A program made the translations under genes and the position numbers. From Oceanicola sp. (lineage in GTDB: Bacteria; Pseudomonadota; Alphaproteobacteria; Rhodobacterales; Rhodobacteraceae): a stretch of 64,000 nt of DNA. Positions 6,067 to 25,935 of this stretch are shown here, in pieces (within the stretch, counting starts at the first letter, position 1; every line of letters starts with the position of its first letter). The notes below the pieces were generated by a model that was not told the DNA's origin, made no database searches, and was given only the letters and a program-made list of their open reading frames with translations. The stretch spans positions 2,378,150 to 2,442,149 of the forward strand of contig CP051231.1 in assembly GCA_017792405.1 (NCBI GenBank). The letters run 5' to 3'.

Positions 6067-6222
6067 CGGCAAACTCCTTCTCTGTTCCCCGCGCCCATTT
6101 TACCCCGCCCGCCGCCGCCCCGCTTTGACACCGCTCAAACCGGCAGCTTGTCAGCAGAAGCATCCGCCCGGCTTGACGGCCCCGTTCCGCGCCCCAACCA
6201 TCAGGCCCAAAGGAGCCCCGCG

Positions 6223-6846
6223 ATGTTCACCACCCTGCTGCCCGATGCCCGCGCCTTCTTCACCCGGCTGGCGGCCAATAACAGCCGCGACTGGTTCATG
6301 GCGCATAAGCCCGAATACGAGCAAACGGTCGCTCAACCCGGCAAGGCGCTGGCCGACGCGCTCGCCGCCCGCCTCACCGCGCTGACGGGCCACGAGATGC
6401 GCCCCAAGATCTTCCGCCAGAACCGCGACACCCGCTTTTCCAAGGACAAGACCCCCTACAAGGCGCACCTCCACATGCTTTGGTCGGAATCGGGCGACCG
6501 TGACACGCCCGCCTTCTTCCTCGGCATCGACCCCGACAGGCTGGTCGCCGGTGCGGGCCAGTTCGGCTTCTCCAAACCGCAACTCGACCGCTGGCGCGCC
6601 GCCGTCGCCGGCCCATCGGGCGAAGAGCTGGAGCGCCTGATCGCCCCCTTCCGCCTCCGCGAACCCGAGCTGAAGCGCGTGCCCGCCCCCTACCCGGCAG
6701 ACCACCCCCGTGCCGCGCTGCTCCGCCACAAAGGCTTCTCCGCCTGGCTCGATCTCGACCCCGACGATCCCCGCCCCGTTGACGAAATCGCGACAGAAGC
6801 CTTCGAGCGCCTCGCCCCCGTCTGGCAATGGCTCGTCAACCCGTAG
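6223..6846 (+). CDS. DUF2461 (TIGR02453) family protein
   Basis: The 207-residue protein carries the TIGR02453/DUF2461 pattern: an N-terminal FFTRLAANNSRDWFMAHKPEYE segment (positions 10-31), PKIFRQNRDTRFSKDKTPYK at about 61-80 and a central FFLGIDPDRLVAGAG. Family members are cytosolic and widespread, with no firmly established activity. The start ATG at 6223 has AGGAG at 6211-6215. It is divergent from ppk2, and the 156-bp gap between them holds both promoters. The next gene downstream starts a toxin-antitoxin module, which is probably separate. Confidence 0.85.
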   Translation: MFTTLLPDARAFFTRLAANNSRDWFMAHKPEYEQTVAQPGKALADALAARLTALTGHEMRPKIFRQNRDTRFSKDKTPYKAHLHMLWSESGDRDTPAFFLGIDPDRLVAGAGQFGFSKPQLDRWRAAVAGPSGEELERLIAPFRLREPELKRVPAPYPADHPRAALLRHKGFSAWLDLDPDDPRPVDEIATEAFERLAPVWQWLVNP

Positions 6847-6938
6847 GACGGTCCGTGGTCCAACCCCACCCGCCCTGAACGCTTGAAATTTCGCGCAACA
6901 GAATGTACATTCAATTGCACATTCAGGAGCGCACCCCG

Positions 6939-7187
6939 ATGAACCGCATCTTCGCCAGCCAAAGCTGCACCATGACCGAACTGCGCGAGCCGCAGAAGGT
7001 GCTCGACCGCGCTAACGGCAAACCCGTCGCCATCATGAAAAACTCCCGCGTCGTCGGCTATCTCGTTCCCGAGGCCGCCACGCCCGAAGAGGAGCCGCGC
7101 GTGGCGACGATGGATGAGGTGATGGAGTCCCTGTCGCGCCGCCGTGACATCAATCAGCCCGTGCTCGACTACCTGAAAGACAAATGA
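6939..7187 (+). CDS. phd: Phd/YefM-type antitoxin
   Basis: This 82-residue protein precedes a Doc-type toxin and overlaps its start by four bases (ATGA). The N-terminal half has the Phd/YefM features TMTELREPQKVLDRANGKPVAI and a SRVVGYLVP strand, the dimeric DNA-binding fold of the family. The acidic, charged C-terminal tail would wrap the toxin. The chosen ATG at 6939 has AGGAG at 6926-6930. Phd proteins repress their own operon through palindromes over the promoter. The preceding bases 6900-6925 contain the short inverted repeat TGTACATTCAATTGCACATT, a plausible operator. Confidence 0.82.
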   Translation: MNRIFASQSCTMTELREPQKVLDRANGKPVAIMKNSRVVGYLVPEAATPEEEPRVATMDEVMESLSRRRDINQPVLDYLKDK

Positions 7188-7564
7188 CCTTCCTGCTCCT
7201 CGACGCGGAGCTTGTCGAGGCGATCCACGACAAGGTTCTGAACCCCGGAGAATTGCCCGGGCGCGCCCTCGACAAATCGCTCGACGGCGCCCTCGCCCGT
7301 GTCGACAACCGCCTGATCTACGGCATGATCGAAGACATTTTCGATCTGGCCGCCGCCTATGCACAAGCCATCGCCTGCGGCCATTGCTTCAACGACGCCA
7401 ACAAGCGCACGGCCCACCAGTCTATGGACGTCTGTCTCGACCTGAACGGCGTCCAGATCACTTGGGATCACACTGAGGCTGGCGACAAGATCATCGCCCT
7501 CGCCCAACGCAAGCTCGACGATATCGACCTCGCCCGCTGGCTCCGCGAGAAAGCCCGCGCCTAG
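7184..7564 (+). CDS. doc: Doc-type Fic-domain toxin
   Basis: The 126-residue protein matches Doc by length and by the Fic core HCFNDANKRTA at about residues 66-76. This has the catalytic His, the acidic residue and the NKR anion-hole residues. Phage P1 Doc phosphorylates elongation factor EF-Tu and stops translation; the same chemistry is expected here but not shown. The start overlaps the antitoxin stop as ATGA, which keeps toxin output tied to antitoxin translation. No truncation is visible, so the pair looks functional. Confidence 0.87.
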   Translation: MTFLLLDAELVEAIHDKVLNPGELPGRALDKSLDGALARVDNRLIYGMIEDIFDLAAAYAQAIACGHCFNDANKRTAHQSMDVCLDLNGVQITWDHTEAGDKIIALAQRKLDDIDLARWLREKARA

Positions 7565-7587
7565 GCCTCCCCCTGAACGGACCCGAC

Positions 7588-7986
7588 ATGCGCCTCCTCA
7601 CCGCCGCCCTCATGCTCACCGCTGCCCCTGCCCTCGCCGAAACCTACGCCTGCACCGTCGAGGCCTTCACCACCTTCTCGCAGGACGACACCGCCTTCAT
7701 TGAGGCCAACCTGCGCAAAACCTACGAGCTGACCCCGCAGCGCAACAGCGTGTCTCTCACCATGCGCTCCGCAGATTTCGAAGGCTACACCGCCACCTAC
7801 GCGGTCACCCGGCGCGACCTGCTGGAAACCATCGCCCAACGCGAGGACCGCGCCAGTGTCGACCTCCTCGTCCTGCCGCCTCGCCCGGCCGATGAGCTCG
7901 ACCGCGAAGGCAAATTCAACGTCACGCTCACGGCACAAGGCAACCACTACACCAACAGCTGGCTGCTCACCTGCACCCGCCCCTAG
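7588..7986 (+). CDS. exported hypothetical protein
   Basis: This 132-residue protein has a clear signal peptide (MRLLTAALMLTAAPALA) with cleavage before ETYACTV. The mature part is small, soluble and has two cysteines, one near the start and one near the C-terminus (LLTCTRP), which could form a disulfide. No enzyme motif is seen and I do not recognise the family. It starts 23 bases after doc in the same direction but its base composition is like the core genome, so it is probably not part of the toxin-antitoxin module. Confidence 0.6.
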   Translation: MRLLTAALMLTAAPALAETYACTVEAFTTFSQDDTAFIEANLRKTYELTPQRNSVSLTMRSADFEGYTATYAVTRRDLLETIAQREDRASVDLLVLPPRPADELDREGKFNVTLTAQGNHYTNSWLLTCTRP

Positions 7987-8005
7987 GCCGGGCAATCCGC
8001 CCGCC
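7984..8005. repeat. degenerate copy of GGTGGGCA palindromic element
   Basis: Directly at the stop codon of the exported protein gene, TAGGCC-GGGCAATC-CGCCCGCC resembles the two identical palindromic elements at 28041 and 56423. The central GGGCAATC is unchanged, and the right arm differs by two bases. It could act as an intergenic hairpin between this gene and parE. Confidence 0.4.
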
Positions 8006-8092
8006 ACCCCAACGGCCCACATCCGCTTTCCCCGCCCCGCCCCATCCGCTACAATCGCCGCCAACCAAAAGCCCGATAAAGAGCAGCACGAC

Positions 8093-10048
8093 ATGGCCGA
8101 CGATCTCCTCAGCGGAAAAGAAACCTCCACCTACGACGCCGCCTCCATCCAGGTGCTCGAAGACATGGAGCACGTCCGCCTCCGCCCCGGTATGTATATC
8201 GGCGGCAAGGACGACCGGGCGCTGCACCACATGGTCGCCGAGATCATCGACAACTCGATGGACGAGGCCGTGGCAGGCCACGCCACATGGATCGAGGTCG
8301 AGATGCACGAGAACGGCCATGTCTCGGTGCGCGACAACGGCCGCGGCATCCCGATCGGTGCCCACCCGAAAGACCCGTCCAAATCCGCGCTCGAGATCAT
8401 CTTCTGCACCCTCAACGCGGGCGGCAAGTTCTCGGGCGACAACTACGAAACCTCGGGCGGCCTCCACGGCGTGGGCTCTTCCGTGGTCAACGCCCTCTCC
8501 GATCACCTCCGCGTGGAAGTGGCGCAAAACCGCGAACTCTACGCCATGGAGTTCTCCCGCGGCGTGCCCCAGACCAAGCTGGAGAAAATCGGCGCCGCCC
8601 CCAACCGGCGCGGCACCACCGTCACCTTCCACCCCGACGCCGAGATCTTCGGCTCGCTCAAGCTCAAGCCGCACCGCCTGTTCAAGATGGCCCGCTCCAA
8701 GGCCTACCTCTTCTCCGGCGTCGAGATCCGCTGGAAGTCCGCCATCCCCGACGGCGACATGCCGATGGAGGCCAAGTTCCACTTCCCCGGCGGGCTGGCC
8801 GACTACCTCTCCGAAACCCTCGGCGAAGCCTCCACCTACGCCGAAAGCCCCTTCGCTGGCACCGTCTCGTTTGAAAAGTTCAATGCCCCCGGCAAGGTCG
8901 AATGGGCGATCAACTGGACGCCCTCGCGCGACGGCTTCATCCAGTCCTACTGTAACACCGTGCCCACGCCCGAGGGCGGCACCCACGAGGCCGGGTTCTG
9001 GGCCGCCATCCTCAAGGGCATCAAGGCCTACGGCGAGCTTGTGAGCAACAAGAAGGCCGCCACCATCACCCGCGAAGACCTTACCACCGGGGCCGGCGCG
9101 CTGGTGAGCTGCTTCATCCGCGAGCCCGAATTCGTCGGCCAAACCAAGGACCGCCTCGCCACCACCGAAGCCCAGCGGATGGTCGAAAACTCCGTGCGCG
9201 ACCACTTCGACAACTGGCTGGCTTCCAACACCAAATCCGCCGGCGCGATCCTCGATTTCCTCGTGCTCCGCGCCGAAGAACGGCTGCGCCGCCGGCAGGA
9301 GAAGGAAACCGCCCGCAAGACGGCGACCAAAAAGCTCCGCCTCCCCGGCAAGCTGGTCGATTGCTCGTCCAACAGCCGTGACGGCACCGAGCTTTTCATC
9401 GTAGAGGGTGACTCGGCCGGCGGCTCCGCCAAAATGGCCCGCAACCGCGTCAATCAGGCCCTGCTGCCCCTGCGCGGCAAGGTGCTGAACGTGCTCGGCG
9501 CCGCCTCCTCCAAGCTCACCTCCAACGCCGAGATCAACGACCTGAGCCAGGCCCTCGGCGTCGGCCTCGGCACCCGCTTCAACATCGACGACCTGCGCTA
9601 CGACAAGATCATCATCATGACCGACGCCGACGTGGACGGCGCCCACATCGCCTCCCTGCTGATGACCTTCTTCTTCACCCAGATGCGCCCGATGATCGAC
9701 GCCGGCCACCTCTACCTCGCCTGCCCGCCCCTCTTCCGCCTGACCCAAGGCGCCAAGCGCGTCTACTGCCTCGACGAGGCCGAACGCGACGAATGGCTCG
9801 AAAAGGGCATCGGCGGAAAGGGCAAGATCGACGTGTCCCGCTTCAAGGGCCTCGGCGAAATGGACGCCAAGGACCTGAAAGAAACCACGATGGACCCGAA
9901 ATCACGCCAACTGATCCGCGTGACCATCGACGAGGACGACCCCGGCGAAACCGGCGATCTGGTGGAACGCCTGATGGGCAAGAAGCCGGAATTGCGTTTC
10001 CAGTATATTCAGGAGAATGCGCGGTTTGTTGAGGAGTTGGATGTTTGA
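8093..10048 (+). CDS. parE: DNA topoisomerase IV subunit B
   Basis: The 651-residue protein is a full-length ParE. Near residue 50 is the GHKL ATP site (EIIDNSMDEAVAG), followed by NGRGIP and GGLHGVGSSVVNAL. The TOPRIM domain has EGDSAGGSAK at about 438 and TDADVDGAHI near 510. The C-terminus ends in QENARFVEELDV. With ParA/ParC it decatenates daughter chromosomes using ATP. ParE, not GyrB, is supported by the short length without a GyrB-type insert. The last roughly 20 codons use AT-rich codons unlike the rest. A low-GC gene begins inside the stop codon. Confidence 0.94.
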   Translation: MADDLLSGKETSTYDAASIQVLEDMEHVRLRPGMYIGGKDDRALHHMVAEIIDNSMDEAVAGHATWIEVEMHENGHVSVRDNGRGIPIGAHPKDPSKSALEIIFCTLNAGGKFSGDNYETSGGLHGVGSSVVNALSDHLRVEVAQNRELYAMEFSRGVPQTKLEKIGAAPNRRGTTVTFHPDAEIFGSLKLKPHRLFKMARSKAYLFSGVEIRWKSAIPDGDMPMEAKFHFPGGLADYLSETLGEASTYAESPFAGTVSFEKFNAPGKVEWAINWTPSRDGFIQSYCNTVPTPEGGTHEAGFWAAILKGIKAYGELVSNKKAATITREDLTTGAGALVSCFIREPEFVGQTKDRLATTEAQRMVENSVRDHFDNWLASNTKSAGAILDFLVLRAEERLRRRQEKETARKTATKKLRLPGKLVDCSSNSRDGTELFIVEGDSAGGSAKMARNRVNQALLPLRGKVLNVLGAASSKLTSNAEINDLSQALGVGLGTRFNIDDLRYDKIIIMTDADVDGAHIASLLMTFFFTQMRPMIDAGHLYLACPPLFRLTQGAKRVYCLDEAERDEWLEKGIGGKGKIDVSRFKGLGEMDAKDLKETTMDPKSRQLIRVTIDEDDPGETGDLVERLMGKKPELRFQYIQENARFVEELDV

Positions 10049-11016
10049 GATGGCCCTTCTCAAAGAGCAGCCCGAATGAATCTCTTTTTGACCAATTCTA
10101 CGATGCGAAGTTGCCCGATCTAATAGTTGCCAAGAAAACGCTCGCGGAAGATATAAGATTCATCTTGAAAAATGAGGGCGTAGAGCATCTGACGCTTCAA
10201 TGCAGGATCAAAGACAAAAGCAGCGCTTGCCGAAAATTTCGTGACAAGGACTATAACAAGCCCGAACAGGTCACCGATCTGCTAGGGGCTCGAATCGTCA
10301 CTCTGCTAGAGACAGACATTTTGCCTGTAGCCAGAGCAGTTTCTGAGAAACTTCTGGAAGTGGATCGAAAGAACTCCTCAGACAAACTAGTTCCACTCAC
10401 TGCCTCAAATTTTGGGTACCGATCCTACCATTTGACGGGCGTTCACACCAACTCCGGTCAGGTTGTTGAACTTCAAATCAGAAGTGCTCTTCAACACGTT
10501 TGGGCTGAGACCGAACATAAGATGCGTTACAAAGCCAGCGCTCCACTGGAGCCGCAGCGGCAGCGGGAATTCGCCCTTGTCGCAGCGATGCTGGAAATTG
10601 CAGATACCAAACTTTGTGAGATGTCGCTGTGTCAGGCTCAGAGTGATCTTGATGAAAAGACAGTTGAAGACTTTGCCGCGTTGGTTTGGGGAAATGCAAA
10701 CGTTTCACCGAACAAAGAACCACATGAGCGGGTGCGTAGATCTGTGCAATTAATCTTTGACTTCGGCATTAACGATCTCAAAGAATTGGAGGCCACTTTA
10801 GAAACAATCGACACTGATGCCCTCACAAACATATTGCAGAAAAGTGGAGTCCTAACTGGATCAGTGTATTGGACCGTTCTTATCGTGCTAGGTTTGTTTG
10901 ACTTCGAGCGCTTGAAACGGCGCGGTCGGGACTTAGAGGCGTACATAGGCGATGGATTTTTGCATCCGTTCCACTCCAGCGTAAGAGACACATTGCGCAA
11001 GAAGAGCGTCAATTAA
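10045..11016 (+). CDS. RelA/SpoT synthetase-domain protein, low GC, probably acquired
   Basis: The 323-residue protein contains a (p)ppGpp-synthetase-like SYNTH domain: RIKDKSS near residue 54, DLLGARI at 78-84 with the catalytic-type Asp, FGYRSYHL at 123-130, and VELQIRSALQHVWAETEH at 141-158 with the Glu needed for catalysis. There is no HD hydrolase, TGS or ACT domain, so it is a small alarmone synthetase-like protein with a helical C-terminal extension. It could make (p)ppGpp/(p)ppApp, or use the same fold as a toxin that modifies tRNA. The TTG start at 10045 overlaps the parE stop; another start is possible. G+C is 42-43% in counted 60-base stretches. Confidence 0.78.
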   Translation: MRWPFSKSSPNESLFDQFYDAKLPDLIVAKKTLAEDIRFILKNEGVEHLTLQCRIKDKSSACRKFRDKDYNKPEQVTDLLGARIVTLLETDILPVARAVSEKLLEVDRKNSSDKLVPLTASNFGYRSYHLTGVHTNSGQVVELQIRSALQHVWAETEHKMRYKASAPLEPQRQREFALVAAMLEIADTKLCEMSLCQAQSDLDEKTVEDFAALVWGNANVSPNKEPHERVRRSVQLIFDFGINDLKELEATLETIDTDALTNILQKSGVLTGSVYWTVLIVLGLFDFERLKRRGRDLEAYIGDGFLHPFHSSVRDTLRKKSVN

Positions 11017-11021
11017 CCCGC

Positions 11022-11162
11022 GGGGTGGCGCATCCCAACGCCCGTCCGTGCCACTTTATCCCTCAGCCTTGGCTCTCCCCCTCCACCGCGCGGCGCCCTA
11101 TCCAAAGCGCCGCCCCGGGGGGCGGGTCGGCGCTGCCCGGCGCCTTGCGGCGCGCACCGGGC
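11022..11162. repeat. dispersed structured intergenic repeat, copy A
   Basis: This 141-bp stretch matches 60044-60183. The two copies share CGTGCCACTTTATCCC and, after 39 divergent bases, a 61-base core with 57 identities. The core folds into two adjacent stems: AGCGCCG with CGGCGCT, then GCCCGG with CCGGGC around an inner CGCC/GGCG. All four differences lie outside these stems. It stands just downstream of the RelA/SpoT-domain gene and may also act as a terminator. Confidence 0.75.
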
Positions 11163-11222
11163 GGGGTCAGTCAACACCGGCAGCACCCCACCCTCCCTAA
11201 ACCCACCACCACACCACAAAAA

Positions 11223-11248
11223 GCCCCCCGCGCTCGCACGCAGGGGGC
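11223..11248 (-). terminator. intrinsic terminator of the CsbD gene
   Basis: On the minus strand a ten-pair stem (GCCCCCTGCG with CGCGGGGGGC, one G-U pair) with a six-base loop is followed by TTTTT. It lies 24 bases after the CsbD stop codon and is a textbook Rho-independent terminator. Confidence 0.8.
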
Positions 11249-11271
11249 CCGTACTCAAAGCTCAAAACCGC

Positions 11272-11478
11272 TTACGCAGCCTTCAGCCCGGCACGCCAGT
11301 CGTCGACCTGCTTTTCGGCCTCTTCACGGGCGTAGCCGTATTTCTGCTGCACGAGGCCCACGAGCTGTTCGCGTTCGCCCTTGGCTTCCTGCAGTTCGTT
11401 GTCGGTCAGCTCGCCCCACTTCTCACGGGCCGAACCTTTCCACTCTTTCCAGTTGCCTTGAATGATATCCCAGTTCAT
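11272..11478 (-). CDS. csbD: CsbD family stress-response protein
   Basis: The 68-residue protein begins MNWDIIQGNWKEWKGSAREKWG, the standard CsbD opening, followed by LTDNELQEAKGEREQLVGLVQQKYGYAREEAEKQVDDW. CsbD proteins are small, highly charged and helical, made under general stress or in stationary phase. Their molecular job is unclear. The gene is monocistronic with its own terminator at 11223-11248 and a good ribosome binding site (GGAGG) upstream of the ATG. Confidence 0.93.
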   Translation of the reverse strand: MNWDIIQGNWKEWKGSAREKWGELTDNELQEAKGEREQLVGLVQQKYGYAREEAEKQVDDWRAGLKAA

Positions 11479-11575
11479 AGCAAACCTCCTTTCGGTTTCT
11501 GCCCCCTCAACGCCGCCCTACGGCCCGAAGTTCCTTTAAACAAAGACGTAGGCGCCCCTCCGCCACAGCGCAAAA

Positions 11576-11595
11576 CGGCGGGGAAATCCCCGCCG
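11576..11595 (-). terminator. intrinsic terminator downstream of 11632-11922
   Basis: On the minus strand CGGCGGGG-ATTT-CCCCGCCG forms a perfect eight-pair hairpin followed by TTTT. It lies 36 bases after the stop codon of the small exported protein gene. Confidence 0.8.
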
Positions 11596-11631
11596 CCAGC
11601 TAGGCAAACAGCCCACCGTTTCAAGCCGCTG

Positions 11632-11922
11632 TCAGCACTCCACGCCCGGCTGCCCGCAAAGCCCGCCATCGGTCCGGCCATCCATGATGCCGCTCGCATT
11701 CGCCTTGGCCGCCTCTTCCTTTGCGCGCTTCCGGGCGGCCTTCTTCGTCTTGTACGAGGCGAAAGCCACCCAGCACTTCTCGCCGCCCTTGCAATCAGTG
11801 TTCTTGATCGCCGCGCCCCAGTAGTTGCCGGCCTTGTAAACGTCGGTTTTCCACTTCGCCGCATCGGCGGCCCCCGCACCGAGCGCCAGGATCATCGCGG
11901 CCATCATCACATGCTTTTTCAT
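11632..11922 (-). CDS. small exported protein, Lys/Ala-rich
   Basis: This 96-residue protein starts with a signal peptide (MKKHVMMAAMILALGAGAADA). The mature part has basic residues, two Cys in DCKGGEKCWVAF and two more at the C-terminus (GLCGQPGVEC), so two disulfides are likely. The middle KTKKAARKRAKEEAAKA forms a charged helix. No family was recognised. The ATG at 11922 has AAGGA just upstream. It is flanked by terminators, so it is its own transcript. Confidence 0.65.
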   Translation of the reverse strand: MKKHVMMAAMILALGAGAADAAKWKTDVYKAGNYWGAAIKNTDCKGGEKCWVAFASYKTKKAARKRAKEEAAKANASGIMDGRTDGGLCGQPGVEC

Positions 11923-12059
11923 CTCAATTCCTTTCAATCGTATCTGTTTGGCACGGCCCAAAACTCCGGGCCTGTTCAACAGATCGGGGCCGCCGTCGGG
12001 CAAAACAACCGCCAGTTGATGACAATGCCCGTCATGAAAGGAAAACCCGCCGCAAATCG

Positions 12060-12461
12060 CTATTTCTGCAGCGTTCTCAGGTACTCAAGCAGGTCAGCAA
12101 TCGCCCGGGTCGTCATGATCGGCTGGCCGGTCTCGGCCTTCACCGCCGTGTCGTCGCCCGCGAACAGTTCGGCATAGACAGGCATCGGCGAGCCGTGGCT
12201 CACCAGCGGGTCGCGCCCGTCGATCCGCATCACCACCCGCGCCACCGGAAACACCCCGCTGTTGTTTAACGCCAGTTCCGTCAGGTCCACCGGTTGCAGC
12301 ACCAGCGCGGGCGCCATCGGCCCCTGCCCGTCGGCATCCAGCCCGTGGCAGGTGGCGCAGTGCCGCTCATAGAGCACCCGTCCCTCGTGAACATCCTGCG
12401 CCGTGGCGGCCCCCGCCGCCATAAGCAACGCCGCGCCTGTCAAAACAGCCTTCATTGTCAT
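12060..12461 (-). CDS. periplasmic c-type cytochrome
   Basis: The 133-residue protein has a signal peptide ending in ATAQ and a single heme-attachment site CATCH at about residues 36-40. The downstream methionine region (GSPMPVYAELF) is the likely source of the axial Met ligand. This is a class I monoheme cytochrome of the cytochrome c family seen near oxidases and dehydrogenases. No redox partner gene is adjacent, so the electron-transfer partner is unknown. It is transcribed away from the lipoprotein gene at 12695. Confidence 0.85.
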   Translation of the reverse strand: MTMKAVLTGAALLMAAGAATAQDVHEGRVLYERHCATCHGLDADGQGPMAPALVLQPVDLTELALNNSGVFPVARVVMRIDGRDPLVSHGSPMPVYAELFAGDDTAVKAETGQPIMTTRAIADLLEYLRTLQK

Positions 12462-12594
12462 GCCTCCCTATTGTCCTGCGCCCAGTCTGCGGGCGCGGGG
12501 AGAGCGGCACCTTGATCCCCGTCAAATGCGGGCTCGGGCTGTCAACCCGGGGCGCACGGTGCGGTCATACCAAGCGGTAAAGCCAGCGCGCGTA

Positions 12595-12627
12595 TGCATG
12601 GGATGTGCATGGGTTGTGCATCAGATG
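12595..12627. repeat. three tandem 11-bp TGCAT-type repeats, copy 1
   Basis: Three 11-bp units stand head to tail: TGCATGGGATG, TGCATGGGTTG and TGCATCAGATG, followed by TG. A close relative with the same period is at 61548-61580. The array lies between divergent genes (12461 minus, 12695 plus), 68 bp from the lipoprotein start. An 11-bp period places each unit on the same DNA face, as for PhoB/OmpR-type regulators. A regulator site is an inference. Confidence 0.6.
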
Positions 12628-12694
12628 TGCCCCCTCTCTCAATCGTGGTTAACCACCGCTTGCCGCCCCCCGGAAATTTTTTAAACTCGCCCCG

Positions 12695-13381
12695 ATGCGC
12701 CTTCTGATTGCCCTCTGTTTCGTCCTTCTCGCCAGTTCCTGCGGCCGTCCGCTGACCGAGGCGGAGAAGGGATTTTTGCAGGAGATTCATGGCGATGGCG
12801 CCGACCTCTCGCGCGTGCGCCTCACCACATGGAGCAGCGTCGGCGCGATCGAGCGCACCTATCTCACCCGCCCCCGCACCACCTGCCGCGAGCTGATCCT
12901 GCCCCCCAGCACGGCCCGAAGCTTCAAGTCCCGCACAGCTGGCCTCGTGCTGTTCAACCGGATTTATCTCAACCCTGACTGGTACTTGGAAGAATATCTC
13001 GAGGGCTGGCCCAACGAGCTGAACCTGCCCGCGGCCATGTTCATCGCCCATGAGATCACCCATGTCTGGCAGTGGCAAAACCGCAAGCTCACCGGCTATC
13101 ACCCGCTGAAGGCCGCCGCCGAGCACAGGGGCAACAGCGACCCCTATCTGTTTGATCCGTCAAGCAATCCGCAGTTTCTCGACTATCCCTACGAGCAGCA
13201 GGCCAGCCTCGTCGAAGAGTTCGTCTGCTGCCGCACGCTGGACCCAGAAGGCAGCCGCACCGCCCGCCTCCGCGACCTGCTCAAACAGGTGATGGACCCG
13301 GCCCCGCTGGAGCTTTCGCGCCCCGTCGTCGCGGTGGTCCTGCCCTGGGAAGGGGCTGAAACCAAAGGGATTTGCTCCTGA
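12695..13381 (+). CDS. lipoprotein with HExxH-type motif
   Basis: The 228-residue protein begins with a lipobox (LASSC), so it should be lipidated at Cys16. Around residues 127-136 is AHEITHVWQW, an HExxH zinc-peptidase-like motif. Further down are EEFVCC and several Tyr/Asp residues that could supply a third ligand (the Glu at about 175). The motif with an alpha-helical context resembles gluzincin peptidases, but I do not recognise a named family. Catalysis is inferred. An array of 11-bp repeats lies 68-100 bp upstream. Confidence 0.7.
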   Translation: MRLLIALCFVLLASSCGRPLTEAEKGFLQEIHGDGADLSRVRLTTWSSVGAIERTYLTRPRTTCRELILPPSTARSFKSRTAGLVLFNRIYLNPDWYLEEYLEGWPNELNLPAAMFIAHEITHVWQWQNRKLTGYHPLKAAAEHRGNSDPYLFDPSSNPQFLDYPYEQQASLVEEFVCCRTLDPEGSRTARLRDLLKQVMDPAPLELSRPVVAVVLPWEGAETKGICS

Positions 13382-13509
13382 CGGCGCCCAGGGTGCGGCG
13401 CGGTAAAGGGTTCTTTCACCTTTTTGACCATACTCTGCGCGAGCGACCTCACCTTGCCCCCGTCGCGCCCACCGCCTAGCTTCGCCGCGATGAACATGGA
13501 GTGAGACCG

Positions 13510-13950
13510 ATGGGCTACGCCACTTCCGCCGCCGTGATGCTCCTTGCGGGCATCGGCATTCCGATCCTCGCGGCGCTCAATGCCTCCCTCGGGCGGCATC
13601 TCGGCTCGCCCGCCTCCGCGGCGGTGGTGCTCTTCATCGTGGCCTTTTGCGCCGCGCTCGTGACCGCCCTCGTCACCGGCCCCGCACCGCTGGCCCGCTT
13701 TGCCACGGCCCCGCGAGAGGGATTTCTCGCCGGCTTCTTCGTGGCCTTCTACGTGCTGTCGATCACATGGGTCGCGCCCTATTTCGGGGTCGGCAACGCG
13801 GTGATCTTCGTGCTGCTGGGGCAGATGATCTCCTTCGCCGTGATCGACCATTTCGGCCTCTTCGGCGCGGCCCAACACGGGCTCAGCCTCGTCCGCGCGG
13901 GCGGGATCGCTCTGATGGCTCTGGGGGTCGTGCTTACGCTGAAGGGGTAG
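13510..13950 (+). CDS. DMT superfamily transporter, YdcZ (DUF606) type
   Basis: This 146-residue protein has about five hydrophobic helices. It shows the YdcZ/DUF606 pattern: an N-terminal GIGIPILAALNASLGRHLGSP and a C-terminal LGVVLTLKG. Such proteins are half-size members of the drug/metabolite transporter superfamily and usually dimerise. The substrate is unknown. The ATG at 13510 is used with GGAG at 13498-13501; an in-frame GTG at 13501 is less likely. Its 3' end overlaps the convergent acidic-protein gene by 17 bases. Confidence 0.8.
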   Translation: MGYATSAAVMLLAGIGIPILAALNASLGRHLGSPASAAVVLFIVAFCAALVTALVTGPAPLARFATAPREGFLAGFFVAFYVLSITWVAPYFGVGNAVIFVLLGQMISFAVIDHFGLFGAAQHGLSLVRAGGIALMALGVVLTLKG

Positions 13951-14554
13951 CCGGCTCGACGCCCACAACCGCGCCTTCGGGCAGCTCGGTCACGCCGGGC
14001 AGAAAGGCCTCCTGCCCCGCCATGCGCACGGTGAGCCCCTCGTCCGAGGCCTCGAATTCCGGCTCCGCCTCCGAGGCGCCGGGCGCTTCGAACACCAGCA
14101 CATCCTCTTCCACGTCGAAGCCGCTGAGATCTTCGGAGCCCTCGTCTTCGGCCTCCGCCAGCGCCTCTTCCGCCGCCTGCGCTTCGGCCTCTTCCTCCGC
14201 CACCTCGGCGGACTCCGATTCGGCGCTCTCGCCCACGGGAACGGCGGCAGGTTTCACCGCCGTTTCAACAGCTTCCGGCCCCTGCTCAACGTCAGGCTCA
14301 CCCTCAGCCTCAGGCGCCTCGGCGACCTCTTCGGCCACCGGCTCCGCACGCTCCGCCTGCTCGGCGTCTTCGGCCATCAGCGCCAGCATATCCTCGCCAT
14401 AGGCCGCCCGCGCAGCCACGGCGGCGTCTTCCTCCGCATTCTGGAGGTTGCCCTCGCCCAGCGCCTCGTCATCGTCTTCATCGCGGCTAGCAGCGTCGCC
14501 AATGAAGCCCAGCAAGAGCATGAGCGGCATAGAGAGAATGAGTGCCCAATCCAT
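13934..14554 (-). CDS. acidic membrane-anchored hypothetical protein
   Basis: The 206-residue protein has one N-terminal transmembrane helix (WALILSMPLMLLLGFIGDAA), then a long, almost purely Glu/Ala-rich region from residue 25 to 150 (repeats of AEEE, EAEAQAAEE). A small C-terminal domain follows from about 160 to 206 (GLTVRMAGQEAFLPGVTEL). The N-terminus should anchor it in the inner membrane with a disordered, very negative spacer. No function is recognised. The composition is extreme but the frame is codon-like and the start sits close to the lolD gene end. Confidence 0.55.
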   Translation of the reverse strand: MDWALILSMPLMLLLGFIGDAASRDEDDDEALGEGNLQNAEEDAAVAARAAYGEDMLALMAEDAEQAERAEPVAEEVAEAPEAEGEPDVEQGPEAVETAVKPAAVPVGESAESESAEVAEEEAEAQAAEEALAEAEDEGSEDLSGFDVEEDVLVFEAPGASEAEPEFEASDEGLTVRMAGQEAFLPGVTELPEGAVVGVEPATPSA

Positions 14555-14643
14555 TGGCCAATGGTTAACAGAGGATTGCGGCGAAAGTTGCCCTAACGTG
14601 CCCGCCTGGGGGAAACAGCCGGTTTCGCAGGTGGAAACGCTGG

Positions 14644-15318
14644 TTAGACCAGAAGCCCGTTCTCCAGCCGCACTGTCCTGTCCATCCGCGCGGCGAGATC
14701 GAGATTGTGGGTCGCGATCAGCGCTGCCAGCCCGGTCTCGCGGACCAGTGTGACAAGGGCCTGGAACACGGTATCCGAGGTGCCCGGATCGAGGTTGCCG
14801 GTCGGCTCGTCGGCCAACAGCAGCGCCGGCCCGTTGGCTAGCGCCCGGCAAAAGGCGACCCGCTGTTGCTCCCCGCCCGAAAGCTCTGCCGGGCGGTGGC
14901 TGGCGCGTGCCTCCAGCCCCACCGTGCCCAGCAGCTCCAGCGCCCGCGCCTCGGCGTCGCCGCGCTCTACCGCATTGGCAAGCTGCGGCAGCACGATGTT
15001 CTCCAGCGCGGTGAACTCCGGCAGAAGGTGATGGAATTGATAGACAAACCCCACCTGCGCCCGCCGCGCCTCGGTGCGCCGCCCGTCCCCGAGCGATCCC
15101 ATGTCGTCGCCCAGCAGCCGGACAGTCCCGGCGGTGGGCGTGTCGAGCAGCCCGGCGATGTGCAGCAGGGTGGATTTGCCCGAGCCGGAGGGTGCCACCA
15201 GCGCCACCACCTCGCCCGCGCTCACCTGCAGCGAGGCCCCGCGCAGCACGTTGATCTCGTTCGGCTTTCCGGCGTTGTAGGTCTTCTCGATCCCGTTCAG
15301 CCCCAAGACTTCACTCAT
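14644..15318 (-). CDS. lolD: lipoprotein-releasing ABC transporter ATP-binding protein LolD
   Basis: The 224-residue ATPase has Walker A APSGSGKST near residue 42, signature LSGGEQQR near 146 and Walker B LLLADEPTGNLD near 165. With the permease next door it powers removal of lipoproteins from the inner membrane for transfer to LolA. The family is MacB/LolD-like; pairing with a LolC/E permease supports LolD. The start at 15318 overlaps the lolC/E stop (15311) by eight bases, so the two are translated together. The frame ends 90 bases before the acidic-protein gene. Confidence 0.92.
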   Translation of the reverse strand: MSEVLGLNGIEKTYNAGKPNEINVLRGASLQVSAGEVVALVAPSGSGKSTLLHIAGLLDTPTAGTVRLLGDDMGSLGDGRRTEARRAQVGFVYQFHHLLPEFTALENIVLPQLANAVERGDAEARALELLGTVGLEARASHRPAELSGGEQQRVAFCRALANGPALLLADEPTGNLDPGTSDTVFQALVTLVRETGLAALIATHNLDLAARMDRTVRLENGLLV

Positions 15319-16606
15319 AGCGCAGCGCCTCCACCGGATCGAGCCGCGCGGCGCGGCGCGCGGGGATGATCGTGGCCCCCCATGAGAGCGCCAGCGCCAG
15401 CGCAACGGCAAAGAGCACATCGCCGGTCTGAAGCTCGCTCGGCACCCGGTAGATGCCCCGGATCGAGGCATCCCAAACCTCGGCACCGCTGAGCCAGTTT
15501 ATGAAGCTGACGATGTTGTTCACGTTCACCGCAAAGAGGCACCCCAGCAGCGTGCCCAGCGCCGTCGCGACCGTGCCGATCAGCGCCCCGCAGAGGAAGA
15601 ACACCCGCAGGATCGCCCCGCGTGTCAGCCCCATGGTGCGCAAGATGCCAATGTCGCGGCCCTTGTTCTTCACCAGCATGATCAGGCCCGAGATGATGTT
15701 GAGCGCCGCGATCAACACGAGGATCGACATGATGATGATCATCATGATGTCTTCAATCACCAGCGCCCGCAGGAAGTTGCCCCAGGCATCCTTCCAGCTC
15801 CACATCACCGCCTTGTCACCGGCAGCCTGCAGCAGCGGCACGTCCCATTGCTCAATGTTTTCCGGGTCTTCAACCATGACCTCGATTTCGCTCGCGGCAC
15901 CGTCGAAGTTGAAGAAGCTCTGCGCCTCAGCAAACGGCAGATACACCCGTGTGCGGTCGATATCCCACCGCCCGGCCTGAAAGACGTAGACCACCTCATA
16001 GGCGTTCACCCGCGGCGTCACCCCCATCGGCCCGCGTACCCCGTTGGGGTTGATGATCCGGATACGGTCGCCCACCACAGCGCCCAGCTCCTGCGCCACG
16101 CCCCAGCCAATGGCGATGCCCTCCTCGAAGCGGGCAATATCGCCCTCCTTCTGCTCGGGCTCCGCGATGCGGGGCAGCTTGGCGAGGTCTTCGGCGCGGA
16201 TGCCATAAACCTCGACCCCCACATTGGCCGCCCGCAGGTTGGCCAGCACCTGCCCCTTCACCAGCGGCGCCACCGAGGTCACGCCCGGCACCTCCGCCAG
16301 CCGCGCGGCCCAGTCGTCATAGTCCACGATCTGCCGCGAGGTCGCGCCGTTCTCGTCCACGTAAACCGCCGAGCGCACCGAGGTATGGGCATTGGCGCCG
16401 ATGATGGTGTCCACAAAGTCGGTCCGGAAGCCCGAGCGCACGGCCATCACCACGATCAGCGCAAAGACCGAGAGCGTGATGCCCCCCAGCGCGATCCAGC
16501 TCAGGATGCTGACGCCGCCGTCAGACCGCTGCGAGCGCAGGTAGCGCCATGCGATCATCCACTCGTATTTCGAGAACGGGGCCGTTCTGCCTGCTGTCTT
16601 GGCCAC
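15311..16606 (-). CDS. lolC: lipoprotein-releasing ABC transporter permease LolC/LolE
   Basis: The 431-residue protein has an N-terminal transmembrane helix, a large periplasmic domain (residues about 50-270) and a C-terminal block of three helices, the layout of LolC/LolE. It extracts mature outer-membrane lipoproteins from the inner membrane. Many alphaproteobacteria have one such permease that works as a homodimer. The start is a GTG at 16606 with AGGAGG seven bases upstream. lolC/E precedes lolD in one transcription unit; proS and an unknown gene lie upstream on the same strand. Confidence 0.92.
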   Translation of the reverse strand: MAKTAGRTAPFSKYEWMIAWRYLRSQRSDGGVSILSWIALGGITLSVFALIVVMAVRSGFRTDFVDTIIGANAHTSVRSAVYVDENGATSRQIVDYDDWAARLAEVPGVTSVAPLVKGQVLANLRAANVGVEVYGIRAEDLAKLPRIAEPEQKEGDIARFEEGIAIGWGVAQELGAVVGDRIRIINPNGVRGPMGVTPRVNAYEVVYVFQAGRWDIDRTRVYLPFAEAQSFFNFDGAASEIEVMVEDPENIEQWDVPLLQAAGDKAVMWSWKDAWGNFLRALVIEDIMMIIIMSILVLIAALNIISGLIMLVKNKGRDIGILRTMGLTRGAILRVFFLCGALIGTVATALGTLLGCLFAVNVNNIVSFINWLSGAEVWDASIRGIYRVPSELQTGDVLFAVALALALSWGATIIPARRAARLDPVEALRYE

Positions 16607-16667
16607 GTCTGGGCCTCCTGCTCGGTTTGGCGCGCAAAATGCTGCGGAGGGGTGCGGGGGTCAAGCG

Positions 16668-17888
16668 CTAACGGTCGCCCGGATCGGGGGCTTTGGCCCA
16701 TTCGGCAAAGGCGTCTTGTCGCAGGTCCACGCAGCCCGCGCGCTGCGCGTCGGTCTCGGGGATGACGGGGTGAGTGAACTCGGGGTTCTGGCTCGTATTC
16801 ACCTGATGATAGCGATGCGCCAGCGCCGCCACGGCGCGGGCCAGAGCCGACCAGAGGTCTTCCTGCGGGTGCGCCAGCACCGCGAGGCGCGCCTCCCAGT
16901 GCGGCACATGGGCGAGCTTGGCCTGATAGCCCAGCCACTGGTGCAGATAGCGCGCCACCGCTGCATCCTCTTCCTCCGGCTGGTTGGCCTCGACCCAACG
17001 CAACAGCCAGCCCCTGAGGCGCCCCAAATCGCCATCGCAGGGCCGTGTGGCGGGCGTGGTCGCCCAAGTCTCGAAGCACTCCACCAGAGGCGTGCTGTTC
17101 CGCAACATGGGCAAAGCCGGAAAGCCCGGCTCCGACCCATCGGGGATCACCCGCGCCCCCAGCACTGGGCTGAGCTTGTCAGCCAACTCGCGCCGCCGCC
17201 GGTCCAGTTTTTCGCACACCGACGCAAGGGCCACGTAACGGTCCGTCACAGGCCCGTTCAGCGGCAGCATCATCTTGGTCCAGTCCTTCTGCCTCTTCTG
17301 CCCGCCCAGTGCCGCCATGAAGCCCGCCAGCTCGGAGGTCGCCGCCTTGCGCCGCCGGTCCTCGCCGGCCCAACCCTCCAGCCAGACCTTCAGCGCCGCC
17401 AGCGTGCCGTCACCCGGCCGGTCCAGCTTGCCGGAGGCGAAGCCCTTGATCAGCTCCGTCAGCGCGTGCTCCGGCGCTGGCGCGAAAGGATCGGCCCCCG
17501 GCGGCAGAGGGCGCGGCTTGGGCTCGGGCCGAGCCGCACGATTCTGCGCCGGTCCATGCTTGCCCTTCTCCACCAGCCGTGCCCGCGCGGCCTTGCCCTC
17601 CTCGAACGCCTCGAACAGCTCGAAGAACAGCGCCACAGCTTCCCGGTCGCTGCCCGCGATCTCGACAAGCGCCACCGGCCAAGGGCTCAGCCCGGCCTCG
17701 GGGTATCTCTCCCGCAGGAACCGCGTGAAGTTGTTGAAAAACGCCGCGTCCTCGCCGCGCGGCCCGCCGTGGAGCCGCTGCGCGTTCCAGCCGTCGAGCC
17801 AAGCCCGCAGCGCCGCCATGCCGCCCTCGCGCTCCACCCGGCCCTTCAGCAGGGCCAGATGTTCAGCAAGCCCTGCGGGCGGGATCAT
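16668..17888 (-). CDS. uncharacterised 406-residue cytosolic protein
   Basis: The protein is long, soluble, and alpha-helical by composition, with many Ala, Arg, Glu and Leu residues and no signal peptide. Trp-rich helical stretches are seen (RAWLDGWN, KVWLEGWAGEDRRRK, GWLLRWVEAN), spaced about 150 residues apart, which suggests two or three repeats of a helical unit. I do not recognise a family or catalytic motif. It starts 10 bases after the proS stop and ends 61 bases before the lolC/E start, so it likely sits in the same transcript. Confidence 0.6.
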   Translation of the reverse strand: MIPPAGLAEHLALLKGRVEREGGMAALRAWLDGWNAQRLHGGPRGEDAAFFNNFTRFLRERYPEAGLSPWPVALVEIAGSDREAVALFFELFEAFEEGKAARARLVEKGKHGPAQNRAARPEPKPRPLPPGADPFAPAPEHALTELIKGFASGKLDRPGDGTLAALKVWLEGWAGEDRRRKAATSELAGFMAALGGQKRQKDWTKMMLPLNGPVTDRYVALASVCEKLDRRRRELADKLSPVLGARVIPDGSEPGFPALPMLRNSTPLVECFETWATTPATRPCDGDLGRLRGWLLRWVEANQPEEEDAAVARYLHQWLGYQAKLAHVPHWEARLAVLAHPQEDLWSALARAVAALAHRYHQVNTSQNPEFTHPVIPETDAQRAGCVDLRQDAFAEWAKAPDPGDR

Positions 17889-17898
17889 GGCGCGCGCC

Positions 17899-19239
17899 TC
17901 AGAGGTGCCCCTCGTAAAGCGCCGCCAGCTTCTGCACGGCGGCCTCGGGGCTGAGTTCCTCGCTCTCGCCGGTGCGGCGCGAGGTCAGCTCCACCACGCC
18001 ATTCTTCAGCCCGCGCGGCCCCACGGTGATCCGCCACGGCAAGCCGATCAGGTCCATCGTCGCAAACTTTGCCCCAGCCCGCTCGTCGGTGTCATCCAGC
18101 AGCGGGTCCAGCCCCAGCGTCTTCAGCGTGCCATAGAGCGCCGTGCTCGTCGCATCACAGGCCTCATCGCCCACCCGCATGTTCACGATGCCCACGTGGA
18201 AGGGCGTCACCCCCTCGGGCCAGATGATGCCATTGTCATCGTGCGATGCCTCGATGATCGCGCCCACAAGGCGGCTCACGCCGATCCCGTGGCTGCCCAT
18301 ATGCACCGGCACCTTGGCCCCGTCCGGCCCCTGCACGTTCGCACCCATCGGCTCGGAATACTTGGTCCCGAAGTAGAAGATCTGCCCCACCTCGATGCCC
18401 TTGCCGTGGCGCCGCCGGTCCTCCGGCACTTCGCCGTAAAGCGCCTCGTCATGGGTCTCGTCGGTGCGGGCGTAGAGCGAGGTGAACTCGTCGCAGACGC
18501 CCTTCACCTGCGCGCGGTCGTCATAGTCGATCTCGCGGTCGCCCAGCTTCAGCTCGGTCACGCCCGCATCATAGAACACGTCGCTCTCGCCGGTCGGGGC
18601 CAGAACGAGGAACTCGTGGGTATCATCCCCGCCGATCGGCCCGCTGTCGGCCCGCATCGGGATCGCCGTCAGCCCCATCCGCTCGTAGGTGCGCAGGTAG
18701 CTCACCATGTGACGGTTGTAGGCATGCAGCGCGTCCTCCTTGGTGAGGTCGAAGTTGTAGCCGTCCTTCATGTAGAACTCGCGGCCACGCATCACGCCAA
18801 AGCGCGGGCGGATCTCGTCGCGGAATTTCCACTGGATGTGGTAGAGCGTCAGCGGCAGGCTCTTGTAGCTGGCCACATGAGCGCGGAAGATGTCGGTGAT
18901 CATCTCCTCGTTCGTCGGGCCAAAGAGCATGTCGCGGTCGTGCCGGTCGCGGATGCGCAGCATTTCGGGGCCATAGGCGTCGTAACGGCCACTCTCGCGC
19001 CACAGATCGGCGGGCTGGATGGTGGGCATCAGCATCGGAATGTGCCCGGCCCGCTGCTGCTCCTCATGCACGATCTGCTCGATCCGCTTGAGCACCTTGA
19101 AGCCCAACGGCAGCCATGAGTAGATCCCGGCGGCCTGCTGACGGATCATGCCCGCGCGCAGCATGTAGCGATGCGAGGCGATCTGCGCGTCGGCAGGGGT
19201 TTCCTTGAGAACAGGCAGAAAGTAGCGGCTCAGGCGCAT
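17899..19239 (-). CDS. proS: prolyl-tRNA synthetase, short alphaproteobacterial type
   Basis: The 446-residue enzyme charges tRNA-Pro. Class II motifs are present: motif 2 region [21 protein letters not shown] near 135-155 and motif 3 [12 protein letters not shown] near 310-325. The length of about 446 residues fits the alphaproteobacterial type that lacks the inserted editing domain of the E. coli enzyme. The start ATG at 19237-19239 opens [13 protein letters not shown]. It heads a minus-strand cluster with the unknown 406-residue protein and lolC/E-lolD. Confidence 0.95.
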
Positions 19240-19297
19240 TTGGGGTCCTCTGGGGCAATGTGCGTTGCCCCGAGGCTCTAGCCCATCGCGGGCGGGC

Positions 19298-23021: not shown

Positions 23022-23037
23022 CCCAAAGAGGCACCCC

Positions 23038-23760: not shown

Positions 23761-25935
<2,175 letters not shown>

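What the first reader, a model, noticed from the sequence alone, without database searches (positions are those of the whole stretch)
12595..12627. Tandem 11-bp TGCAT repeats, shared by two distant promoters
Three exact-period 11-bp units precede the HExxH lipoprotein gene, and a related three-unit array lies at 61548-61580 upstream of the Hsp70-like gene. The first units are identical. An 11-bp period matches the helical-turn spacing of PhoB/OmpR-type operators. No regulator with this known site is coded in the window.
Basis: partly seen in the sequence, partly recalled or inferred. Interest (0 to 1): 0.6.

Follow-up and report, generated by a model that had tools for sequence, protein, structure and literature searches.

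The report
Dispersed origin-like repeat arrays in bacteria
A marine bacterium carries about 56 short, consistently oriented DNA repeat arrays that sit near places where the compositional bias between its two DNA strands shifts as it does at replication starts, which suggests that its chromosome may begin copying at many places instead of one.

Summary
The arrays are real: four 11-bp units each (TATGCAT-N4-[TGTGCAT-N4]x3), at 12593-12632 and 61546-61585. They belong to a family of 56 found in this 4.31-Mb chromosome (probably Vannielia, Roseobacteraceae), with relatives in other genera of the family. They are not promoter operators as a rule: of 52 classified, 15 lie between convergent and only 4 between divergent genes, and in three genera an array lies inside valS. 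Array strand is locked to local GC skew: 54 of 55 here, 56 of 67 in other Rhodobacteraceae, against 7 of 16 and 11 of 20 in unrelated controls. The skew changes sign repeatedly along the chromosome. It is strongest just 5' of arrays, weakens within 10 kb on the 3' side, and declines between arrays; a predicted 315-kb decline was confirmed. Arrays pointing at each other are close (median 28.5 kb), arrays pointing apart are far (113 kb). This saw-tooth is the classical signature of multiple replication starts, which is unusual for a bacterium. Best reading: dispersed, oriented, initiation-associated sites added to oriC. The binding protein is unknown; DnaA is possible but unproven. One array-less relative shows single-origin-like skew. 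No replication data were available.

The parts
12593..12632 (+). Array 1: four units TATGCAT-GGGA / TGTGCAT-GGGT / TGTGCAT-CAGA / TGTGCCC, 11-bp period (genome position 2390744)
61546..61585 (+). Array 2: four units TATGCAT-GGGA / TGTGCAT-CAGT / TGTGCAT-CGAA / TGTGTAT, 11-bp period (genome position 2439697)
12648..12653 (.). GTTAAC box 3' of array 1; GTTAAY occurs within 56 bp 3' of 40 of 55 G000 arrays against 2 of 64 array-free pieces, so in Vannielia it belongs to the element
61600..61605 (.). GTTAAC box 3' of array 2; a further one lies 5' at 61516-61521
12060..12455 (-). Left neighbour of array 1: cytochrome c (PF00034)
12695..13381 (+). Right neighbour of array 1: lipoprotein-like protein with HEITH motif, no Pfam or NCBIfam hit; its relative also follows an array in another genus (L049)
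60218..61441 (-). Left neighbour of array 2: Hsp70-like protein (PF00012; best NCBIfam model PRK11678, below its cut-off)
61624..63042 (-). Right neighbour of array 2: GlcD-like FAD oxidase (PF02913, PF01565; NCBIfam glcD below its cut-off)
1..64000 (.). The window lies in one negative-GC-skew tract (-0.04 to -0.30 per 2 kb on the + strand); both arrays are on the C-rich + strand, as the rule predicts

Best explanation
The arrays are oriented, dispersed chromosomal sites that mark, and probably nucleate, extra replication initiation in addition to the ordinary origin. Copies of an unknown protein (possibly DnaA) bind the four units in helical phase. Initiation then happens at the array or within about 10-20 kb on its 3' side, and forks leave mainly toward the 5' side, so the DNA 5' of each array is mostly replicated in one direction. 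Over evolution this leaves a G+T-rich leading-strand signature that is strongest at the array and weakens over tens of kb. Two arrays pointing at each other 20-37 kb apart enclose an origin-like zone; arrays pointing apart bound a long termination zone. Shown: the array family, its orientation rule, its spacing rule, the skew saw-tooth in the stretches read, and conservation of cores over spacers. Inferred: that the skew reflects replication direction, that initiation is caused by the arrays, and that a protein binds them.
For: Strand lock to skew: 54 of 55 G000 arrays on the C-rich strand; 56 of 67 other Rhodobacteraceae loci (p=2e-8) against 7 of 16 loci of other phyla and 11 of 20 viral contigs; 5 of 5 variant-core arrays in G005 (read off). 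Not a gene-strand effect: 51.5% of coding bases co-oriented with the G-rich strand, coding bias along the array strand null, and fourfold sites of both gene strands follow the same course. The 5' side is more C-rich than the 3' side at 15 of 16 arrays (16 of 19 in the long stretches could be scored); mean difference -0.20 against -0.006 for random sites with strand set by local skew, 0 of 50,000 resamples. Metaprofile of 20 arrays: -0.30 just 5', -0.115 at 5-10 kb 3', about 0 at 20-25 kb 3'. Prediction written before fetching and confirmed: in the divergent gap 3006156-3321962 skew falls from +0.27/+0.30 to -0.41, r=-0.84, p=5e-9, fitted zero at 3.146 Mb against a midpoint of 3.164 Mb. Of gaps with at least 3 bins, all 7 that are -- or -+ have negative slopes (p<0.05 in 5) and both +- gaps rise (3 bins each, not significant). 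Convergent gaps median 28.5 kb against divergent 113 kb (n=15 each, p=3.4e-5; strand permutation 7e-5); same direction in Harenicola (33.8 against 112 kb, p=0.010), G003 (68 against 385 kb, p=0.004) and G004 C1 (54 against 156 kb, p=0.056). Minimum spacing larger than chance in G000 (P=1.5e-5). TA skew co-varies with GC skew (r=0.48, p=9e-5, 61 bins). Single-origin-like skew in the array-less relative G009. Skew proportional to fork polarity, and upward jumps marking initiation zones: PMC3320577 (passages read; human data).
Against: No direct replication data. The skew does not jump at 3-kb resolution (G000 mean -0.008) nor clearly at 5 kb (P=0.14); several switches lie kilobases away from the arrays, so arrays may accompany initiation and not cause it. 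In Harenicola the jump is only P=0.06-0.16 against random sites of the same chosen segments. On the 5' side the mean skew falls to about -0.1 at 40-55 kb but stays at -0.10 to -0.18 out to 80 kb, so the tract has no clean end. No extended AT-rich unwinding region beside arrays (A+T 0.39-0.62 over 10 bp). Each of 30 genomes has one DnaA match, and its C-terminal region shows no fixed difference between array and array-less genomes; unit positions 8-9 are AA in only 2 of about 147 G000 units; the G005 core (TGTGYAC) departs from the DnaA box. Mean absolute skew at the gltD and dnaA loci does not differ between array-bearing and array-less genomes. 37 of 56 arrays also agree with a single origin near mnmG (p=0.022). 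mnmG lies inside a convergent pair in G000 and G003 but not in G004 or Harenicola; dnaA lies in one in Harenicola but not in G000. In Thalassobius/Paenihalocynthiibacter only 7 of 11 arrays follow the strand rule. One G000 array (1120423) breaks it. Harenicola has four gaps under 19 kb, one of 2.4 kb (11.3 expected). Only one array-less genome was sampled, and less than a third of G000 was read for skew.
Confidence: 0.5

Rival explanations
1. Oriented chromosome-organisation sites (loop anchors, nucleoid-protein or segregation sites) that are selected to follow the local replication direction; the extra initiation that shapes the skew has another cause.
For: Convergent pairing at 20-37 kb and avoidance of closer spacing resemble loop anchors. 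No sharp skew jump at the array itself. Conserved position irrespective of gene context, even inside valS.
Against: Needs a second, unseen cause for the multiple skew switches. It does not by itself predict that the 5' side is systematically more skewed than the 3' side.
Confidence: 0.25
2. Replicative mobile or selfish sites: a nickase or transposase-like protein starts unidirectional (rolling-circle-like) synthesis at arrays, and target immunity keeps copies apart.
For: Polarity is one-sided around arrays; spacing in G000 looks like an exclusion zone of about 19 kb followed by random gaps (residual CV 1.03); distribution is patchy (8 of 295 genomes of the family); recurring flank classes suggest copied blocks.
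Against: Arrays occupy the same intergenic position in different genera, and cores are kept while spacers diverge, which suggests a host-selected site. No array-adjacent mobile gene was noticed, but neighbours were not surveyed systematically.
Confidence: 0.1
3. A single-origin chromosome with oriented sites that was scrambled by many inversions; arrays and skew flip together.
For: Would keep arrays locked to skew; 37 of 56 arrays agree with one origin near mnmG.
Against: Inversions should make +- and -+ gaps equally long, but they differ fourfold and the same way in three further genomes. Skew changes gradually over tens to hundreds of kb.
Confidence: 0.08
4. Operator of a PhoB/OmpR-type response regulator at promoters.
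For: 11-bp direct repeats; some arrays lie 25-33 bp before a start codon at the same gene in different genera (lpd, an ilvH-like gene).
Against: 15 of 52 convergent and 4 of 52 divergent; valS coding position; the identified neighbours are unrelated housekeeping genes; strand follows GC skew, not genes.
Confidence: 0.05

Closest known systems
DnaA-box arrays of bacterial oriC (low-affinity sites in E. coli oriC; PMC4285127, passages read)
   Same: Tandem, same-orientation short sites that can guide an oligomer; the Vannielia core TGTGCAT fits the reverse complement of TTATNCACA over 7 bases (that degenerate box, and the 2-bp spacing that gives an 11-bp period, are recalled); upward skew shift nearby.
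   Different: 56 per chromosome and not one; no long AT-rich unwinding region; bases 8-9 of the box are rarely AA; the species G005 uses TGTGYAC; DnaA binding untested.
Human skew N-domains bordered by initiation zones (PMC3320577, passages read)
   Same: Upward skew shifts at initiation zones, near-linear decline between them, zero near the middle.
   Different: A bacterium; domains of tens to hundreds of kb and not megabases; a specific oriented sequence element near the borders; shifts spread over about 10-30 kb here.
Bacterial chromosomes with two or more origins: Vibrio cholerae strains with a single chromosome (PMC6284228, abstract start seen in a listing) and E. coli with added ectopic origins (PMC6116050, PMC7174701, abstract starts seen in a listing)
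   Same: More than one initiation site in one bacterial chromosome.
   Different: As I recall, few origins, derived from chromosome fusion or engineering; here dozens of similar small sites.
Tus-Ter polar fork barriers (recalled)
   Same: Oriented sites that interact with fork direction.
   Different: By my reasoning a polar barrier should give a downward skew step; the arrays show an upward one.
REP/BIME intergenic repeats (recalled)
   Same: Dispersed, intergenic, often near gene 3' ends.
   Different: REPs are palindromic hairpins; these are direct repeats locked to skew strand.

Membership tests
PhoB/OmpR-type tandem operator | Direct repeats of about 11 bp | tested here: met
PhoB/OmpR-type tandem operator | Located in promoter regions, upstream of regulated genes | tested here: not met
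   15 of 52 convergent, 4 of 52 divergent; valS coding position
PhoB/OmpR-type tandem operator | Bound by a response regulator | not testable with these tools
   needs affinity capture or footprinting
Bacterial chromosomal origin (oriC) | Cluster of DnaA boxes | tested here: inconclusive
   Core TGTGCAT compatible with the box, but positions 8-9 are AA in only 2 of about 147 G000 units and G005 uses TGTGYAC
Bacterial chromosomal origin (oriC) | AT-rich unwinding element beside the boxes | tested here: not met
   A+T 0.39-0.62 in the first 10 bp 3', 0.33-0.50 in the next 10 bp, eight genus groups
Bacterial chromosomal origin (oriC) | Upward GC-skew shift | tested here: met
   on the 8-12 kb scale in G000 (P=0.007 and 0.002), not at 3 or 5 kb; Harenicola P=0.06; 5'/3' asymmetry at 15 of 16 arrays
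Bacterial chromosomal origin (oriC) | One per chromosome | tested here: not met
   56 arrays
Bacterial chromosomal origin (oriC) | Drives autonomous replication | not testable with these tools
   needs a plasmid assay
Iteron origin with Rep_3 initiator | Rep_3-type initiator gene in the genome | tested here: not met
   PF01051 absent from G000 and from Harenicola G262; present in 5 of 30 genomes (3 of the 14 array-bearing, G005 counted among them, and 2 of the 16 others)
N-domain-like replication landscape | Skew decline between upward shifts | tested here: met
   slopes negative in 7 of 7 -- and -+ gaps with at least 3 bins, p<0.05 in 5
N-domain-like replication landscape | Replication timing or fork direction agrees | not testable with these tools
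   no sequencing-depth or nascent-strand data here
Tus-Ter polar barrier | Downward skew step at the site | tested here: not met
   steps are upward

The most novel reading that the evidence does not exclude
These bacteria replicate one circular chromosome from dozens of dispersed, sequence-specified, oriented start sites (the arrays) as well as oriC: a natural multi-origin bacterial chromosome with a eukaryote-like saw-tooth of fork direction. The recognition sequence drifts between species (TGTGCAT in six Vannielia genomes, TGTGYAC in a seventh), which implies a co-evolving initiator.
Probability: 0.35. Interest if true: 0.97.

Novelty: categorically new. Interest (0 to 1): 0.87.

Why it matters
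Bacterial chromosomes are taken to start replication at one origin. A natural bacterium whose base composition looks as if replication starts at dozens of marked, oriented sites would overturn that rule, supply a sequence code for them, and give a tractable model for how multi-origin replication evolves. Even if the arrays only organise the chromosome, a 40-bp element whose direction predicts local strand asymmetry in 54 of 55 cases is a new kind of bacterial chromosome landmark. The claim can be tested with sequencing-depth data.

Tried and rejected
Promoter operator: rejected as the main role by gene context, the valS coding position and strand behaviour. Phage source: the viral-contig scan gave 29 contigs. 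Their repeats look unrelated by eye; 11 of 29 are TGTGCATAAG units beside TTATCCACAGG boxes, and their strand does not follow skew (11 of 20 negative; 20 of 29 had enough sequence). Plasmid and phage record collections were not searched. DnaA paralogue as array-specific initiator: PF08299 gives exactly one match in each of 30 genomes. DnaA C-terminal differences: one search found no fixed difference but its G009 row was a wrong reading frame; repeated without that row, still none (14 against 15 rows, and 12 against 15 without G160 and G280). Rep_3 initiator: PF01051 in 5 of 30 genomes, not in G000. Strict periodicity of positions: no convincing peak. Strand bias by whole-genome eighths: no simple two-replichore pattern. 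Stronger skew in array-bearing genomes at the gltD and dnaA loci: no difference. Array 3' of gltD in other genera: none seen by eye in 12 other genomes of the family (L212-L223; one search printed minus-strand loci in the wrong orientation and was redone). An acs array found in two genera is on opposite sides of the gene, so I do not count it as the same place; serS-yajC and gatB share the neighbourhood but not the exact gap. Paper search for the motif: nothing relevant among 14 titles and abstract starts. Searches for chromosome-organisation repeats, DnaA-like replicons, GC skew with multiple origins, low-affinity DnaA arrays, DnaA boxes in Rhodobacteraceae, N-domains, Vannielia and ectopic origins: I saw no report of such arrays or of a natural many-origin bacterium in the listings, and read passages of only four papers: PMC2804667, PMC6699656, PMC3320577, PMC4285127. 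PMC6699656 reports a skew switch inside one replichore of Celeribacter marinus, read there as an inversion or misassembly, and eight Rhodobacteraceae without a clear oriC. Caveats: genes were called by my own simple codon-usage script trained on the window; the 40-kb cut in the spacing counts was chosen after seeing the data (the rank and permutation tests do not use it); Harenicola stretches were chosen around convergent pairs.

Full report
WHAT IS THERE. The two arrays exist and are not chance. Each has four 11-bp units and not three. The window is positions 2378150-2442149 of a complete 4,309,625-bp chromosome, G000. The genus is probably Vannielia (Roseobacteraceae): matches in the same-genus genomes G001 and G006 fall at the same contig positions as in named Vannielia contigs. 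The three-unit pattern has 79 overlapping matches in G000 and none for the reversed control. A four-unit pattern with up to three mismatches adds only one array to those known, so the family has a fairly sharp edge. I work with 56 arrays: 55 fetched with flanks, plus the one at 4300594. In Vannielia the element is wider than the array: GTTAAY lies within 56 bp 3' of 40 of 55 arrays, against 2 of 64 array-free intergenic pieces.

DISTRIBUTION. The strict pattern TGTGCATN4TGTGCATN4TGTGCAT is in 6 of 61 genomes of a relatives set, all in this genus, where 6 of 7 have it, and in 8 of 295 genomes drawn across the family. The patchiness is partly core drift. G005, the Vannielia genome with no strict hit, has arrays of the same build with core TGTGYAC: five in ten sampled 20-kb stretches. 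At the 3' end of gltD, a place fetched by protein, all seven Vannielia genomes have an array; core bases agree at 0.90 and spacers at 0.63 over all pairs. The same intergenic place is occupied in different genera at gltD, cmk, lpd and the window lipoprotein, and at genes that I read from their starts as ilvH, livG, fabH-like and a cytochrome c (gltD, lpd and cmk named). In three genera (Cognatishimia, Actibacterium, Flavimaricola) an array is read through by the valS frame (named for L035, below the curated cut-off, the locus being partial).

NOT OPERATORS. Of 55 G000 arrays 54 are intergenic by my gene calls and one overlaps a weakly scored call. Of the 52 with both flanking genes called, 18 are -[>]-, 15 +[>]+, 15 convergent and 4 divergent. 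Array-free gaps of at least 80 bp in the same loci give 12, 20, 6 and 26; convergent enrichment p=0.008, divergent depletion p=4e-5. In 85 loci of other Rhodobacteraceae: 25 convergent, 24 +[>]+, 9 -[>]-, 12 divergent, 5 overlapping a called gene, 10 with only one flank called. Promoter association is not the rule.

SPACING AND ORIENTATION. No two arrays in G000 are closer than 14.4 kb, and only that pair, across the record ends, is closer than 19.6 kb; 56 random points do as well with P=1.5e-5. In Harenicola the avoidance is weaker: 4 gaps under 19 kb, one of 2.4 kb, against 11.3 expected (P=0.004). Neighbours that point at each other (+-) are close, median 28.5 kb with 12 of 15 under 40 kb. 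Neighbours that point apart (-+) are far, median 113 kb with 0 of 15 under 40 kb (Mann-Whitney 3.4e-5, strand permutation 7e-5). Harenicola maris (G262; 67 matches collapsed by hand to 53 arrays) repeats this: 33.8 against 112 kb, p=0.010, permutation 0.009. G003 (p=0.004) and G004 C1 (p=0.056) agree, though arrays in one genus share ancestry and so are not independent tests.

STRAND LOCK TO GC SKEW. Over 4 kb, 54 of 55 G000 arrays lie on the C-rich strand (mean skew -0.105). By genus, over whole loci: Harenicola 12 of 12, Marivivens 5 of 5, Cognatishimia 9 of 10, Actibacterium 7 of 8, DEBay MAG 8 of 9, Flavimaricola 6 of 7, Thalassobius/Paenihalocynthiibacter only 7 of 11 (62 of the 85 loci were given to that call). 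Over all other Rhodobacteraceae loci with enough sequence it is 56 of 67 (18 of 85 dropped as too short; p=2e-8). Controls are random: 7 of 16 loci of other phyla (of 23) and 11 of 20 viral contigs (of 29). Gene orientation does not explain it.

THE SKEW LANDSCAPE. Because array strands alternate, the skew itself must flip often, and it does. I read 1.26 Mb of G000 in long stretches (1.00-1.68, 2.04-2.10 and 2.88-3.34 Mb, and the window). The skew turns from negative to positive inside the convergent pairs at 1034/1057, 2064/2083 and 2887/2908 kb and is rising toward zero inside 3322/3346 kb where the stretch ends; the pair 1120/1150 kb is an exception, positive throughout. At fourfold-degenerate sites, on both gene strands, it forms a saw-tooth. 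Averaged on the array strand it is -0.30 just 5' of the array, -0.115 at 5-10 kb 3', about zero at 20-25 kb 3', about -0.1 at 40-55 kb 5', and -0.10 to -0.18 from there to 80 kb. The 5' side is the more skewed at 15 of 16 scorable arrays; random sites whose strand was set by local skew show no such asymmetry (0 of 50,000 resamples). There is no step within 3 kb and none that is significant at 5 kb; the shift appears at 8-12 kb (P=0.007 and 0.002), and in Harenicola it is weaker against its own chosen segments (P=0.06). Before fetching it I wrote down that the 315-kb divergent gap 3006156-3321962 should fall from positive through zero in mid-gap to negative. It does: slope -0.197 per 100 kb, r=-0.84, p=5e-9, fitted zero at 3.146 Mb, midpoint 3.164 Mb. 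Over every gap with at least three bins, the 7 that are -- or -+ all fall (p<0.05 in 5) and the 2 that are +- rise (3 bins each, not significant); three gaps had too few bins. TA skew rises with GC skew (r=0.48), as on a leading strand (recalled).

CONTROL GENOME. G009, a complete family member without the arrays, has weak skew (mean absolute 0.085 against 0.215). Among 20 samples around the chromosome it shows one positive and one negative block with a few near-zero deviations, and 21 of 22 bins of 2.20-2.42 Mb are negative; no array-like site was found in 600 kb with the degenerate pattern. Its dnaA and mnmG lie near the negative-to-positive switch. This is only one control, and at the small gltD and dnaA loci mean absolute skew does not separate array from array-less genomes.

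MECHANISM. Skew produced by replication is proportional to fork polarity, and upward jumps mark initiation zones, as worked out for human N-domains (PMC3320577, passages). By the same reasoning a polar fork barrier would give a downward step, and random inversions would make +- and -+ gaps equal. So the arrays sit at or within about 10-20 kb of places where initiation seems to exceed termination, and they point toward the start zone while the polarised tract extends behind them. mnmG, a rough marker for the classical origin (recalled for this class), lies inside a convergent pair in G000 and G003 but not in G004 or Harenicola; dnaA lies inside one in Harenicola but not in G000. 37 of 56 array strands agree with a single origin at mnmG (p=0.022). 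The picture is therefore oriC plus dispersed extra starts. Which protein binds is open. For DnaA: TGTGCAT fits the core of TTATNCACA (recalled), E. coli oriC has arrays of low-affinity DnaA sites (PMC4285127, passages), and 11 of 29 viral hits carry TGTGCATAAG units in 11-bp register with TTATCCACAGG. Against it: no unwinding region, no DnaA covariation, AA at box positions 8-9 in only 2 of about 147 units, and a G005 core that departs from the box.

VERDICT. Best reading: dispersed, oriented, initiation-associated sites of a kind I did not find described. Replication profiles would decide.

Noticed in passing
L150, L156, L165, L168, L185, L192, L202 (5' of arrays); L155, L161, L166, L172, L173: Arrays in Vannielia come in a few flank classes: a palindrome-bearing TATGTCATCTGACATGCGCAT-like stretch just 5' of some arrays, TTTTGCATTTTTGTCGTA in others, suggesting copying of longer blocks.
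   Followed up: partly
L150-L204, e.g. window 12648-12653 and 61600-61605: GTTAAY boxes recur within 56 bp 3' of 40 of 55 Vannielia arrays (2 of 64 control pieces) and within 71 bp 5' of 30 of 55 (no control made for the 5' count); not obvious by eye in other genera.
   Followed up: partly
window 61532-61547 and 61625-61640: Two similar AT-rich palindromes (TATTCATTTCTGAATA / TATTCATATTTGAATA) bracket the second array.
   Followed up: no
L205-L211, L213, L215: GGTCAGC...GCTGACC-type elements near gltD in several genera, independent of the arrays.
   Followed up: no
L122, L124, L125, L126, L129, L134, L137, L142, L144, L146, L148: Eleven viral contigs carry TGTGCATAAG units in 11-bp register with TTATCCACAGG/TTTTCCACAGG: phased DnaA-box-like arrays in a virus group.
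   Followed up: partly
L339, L327, L333, L335, L337, L338, L340: Vannielia DnaA has FGNRDHTTVLYA(V/I) in the C-terminal signature where most relatives in the alignment have FGGRDHTT.
   Followed up: partly
G004:C1:1-958819: No array of the pattern in the first 959 kb of G004 C1, although 21 lie in the rest of that contig.
   Followed up: no
L164 (G000:C1:1120423): The only one of 55 arrays on the G-rich strand; its convergent partner is 29 kb away without a skew switch between them, perhaps a recent array.
   Followed up: partly
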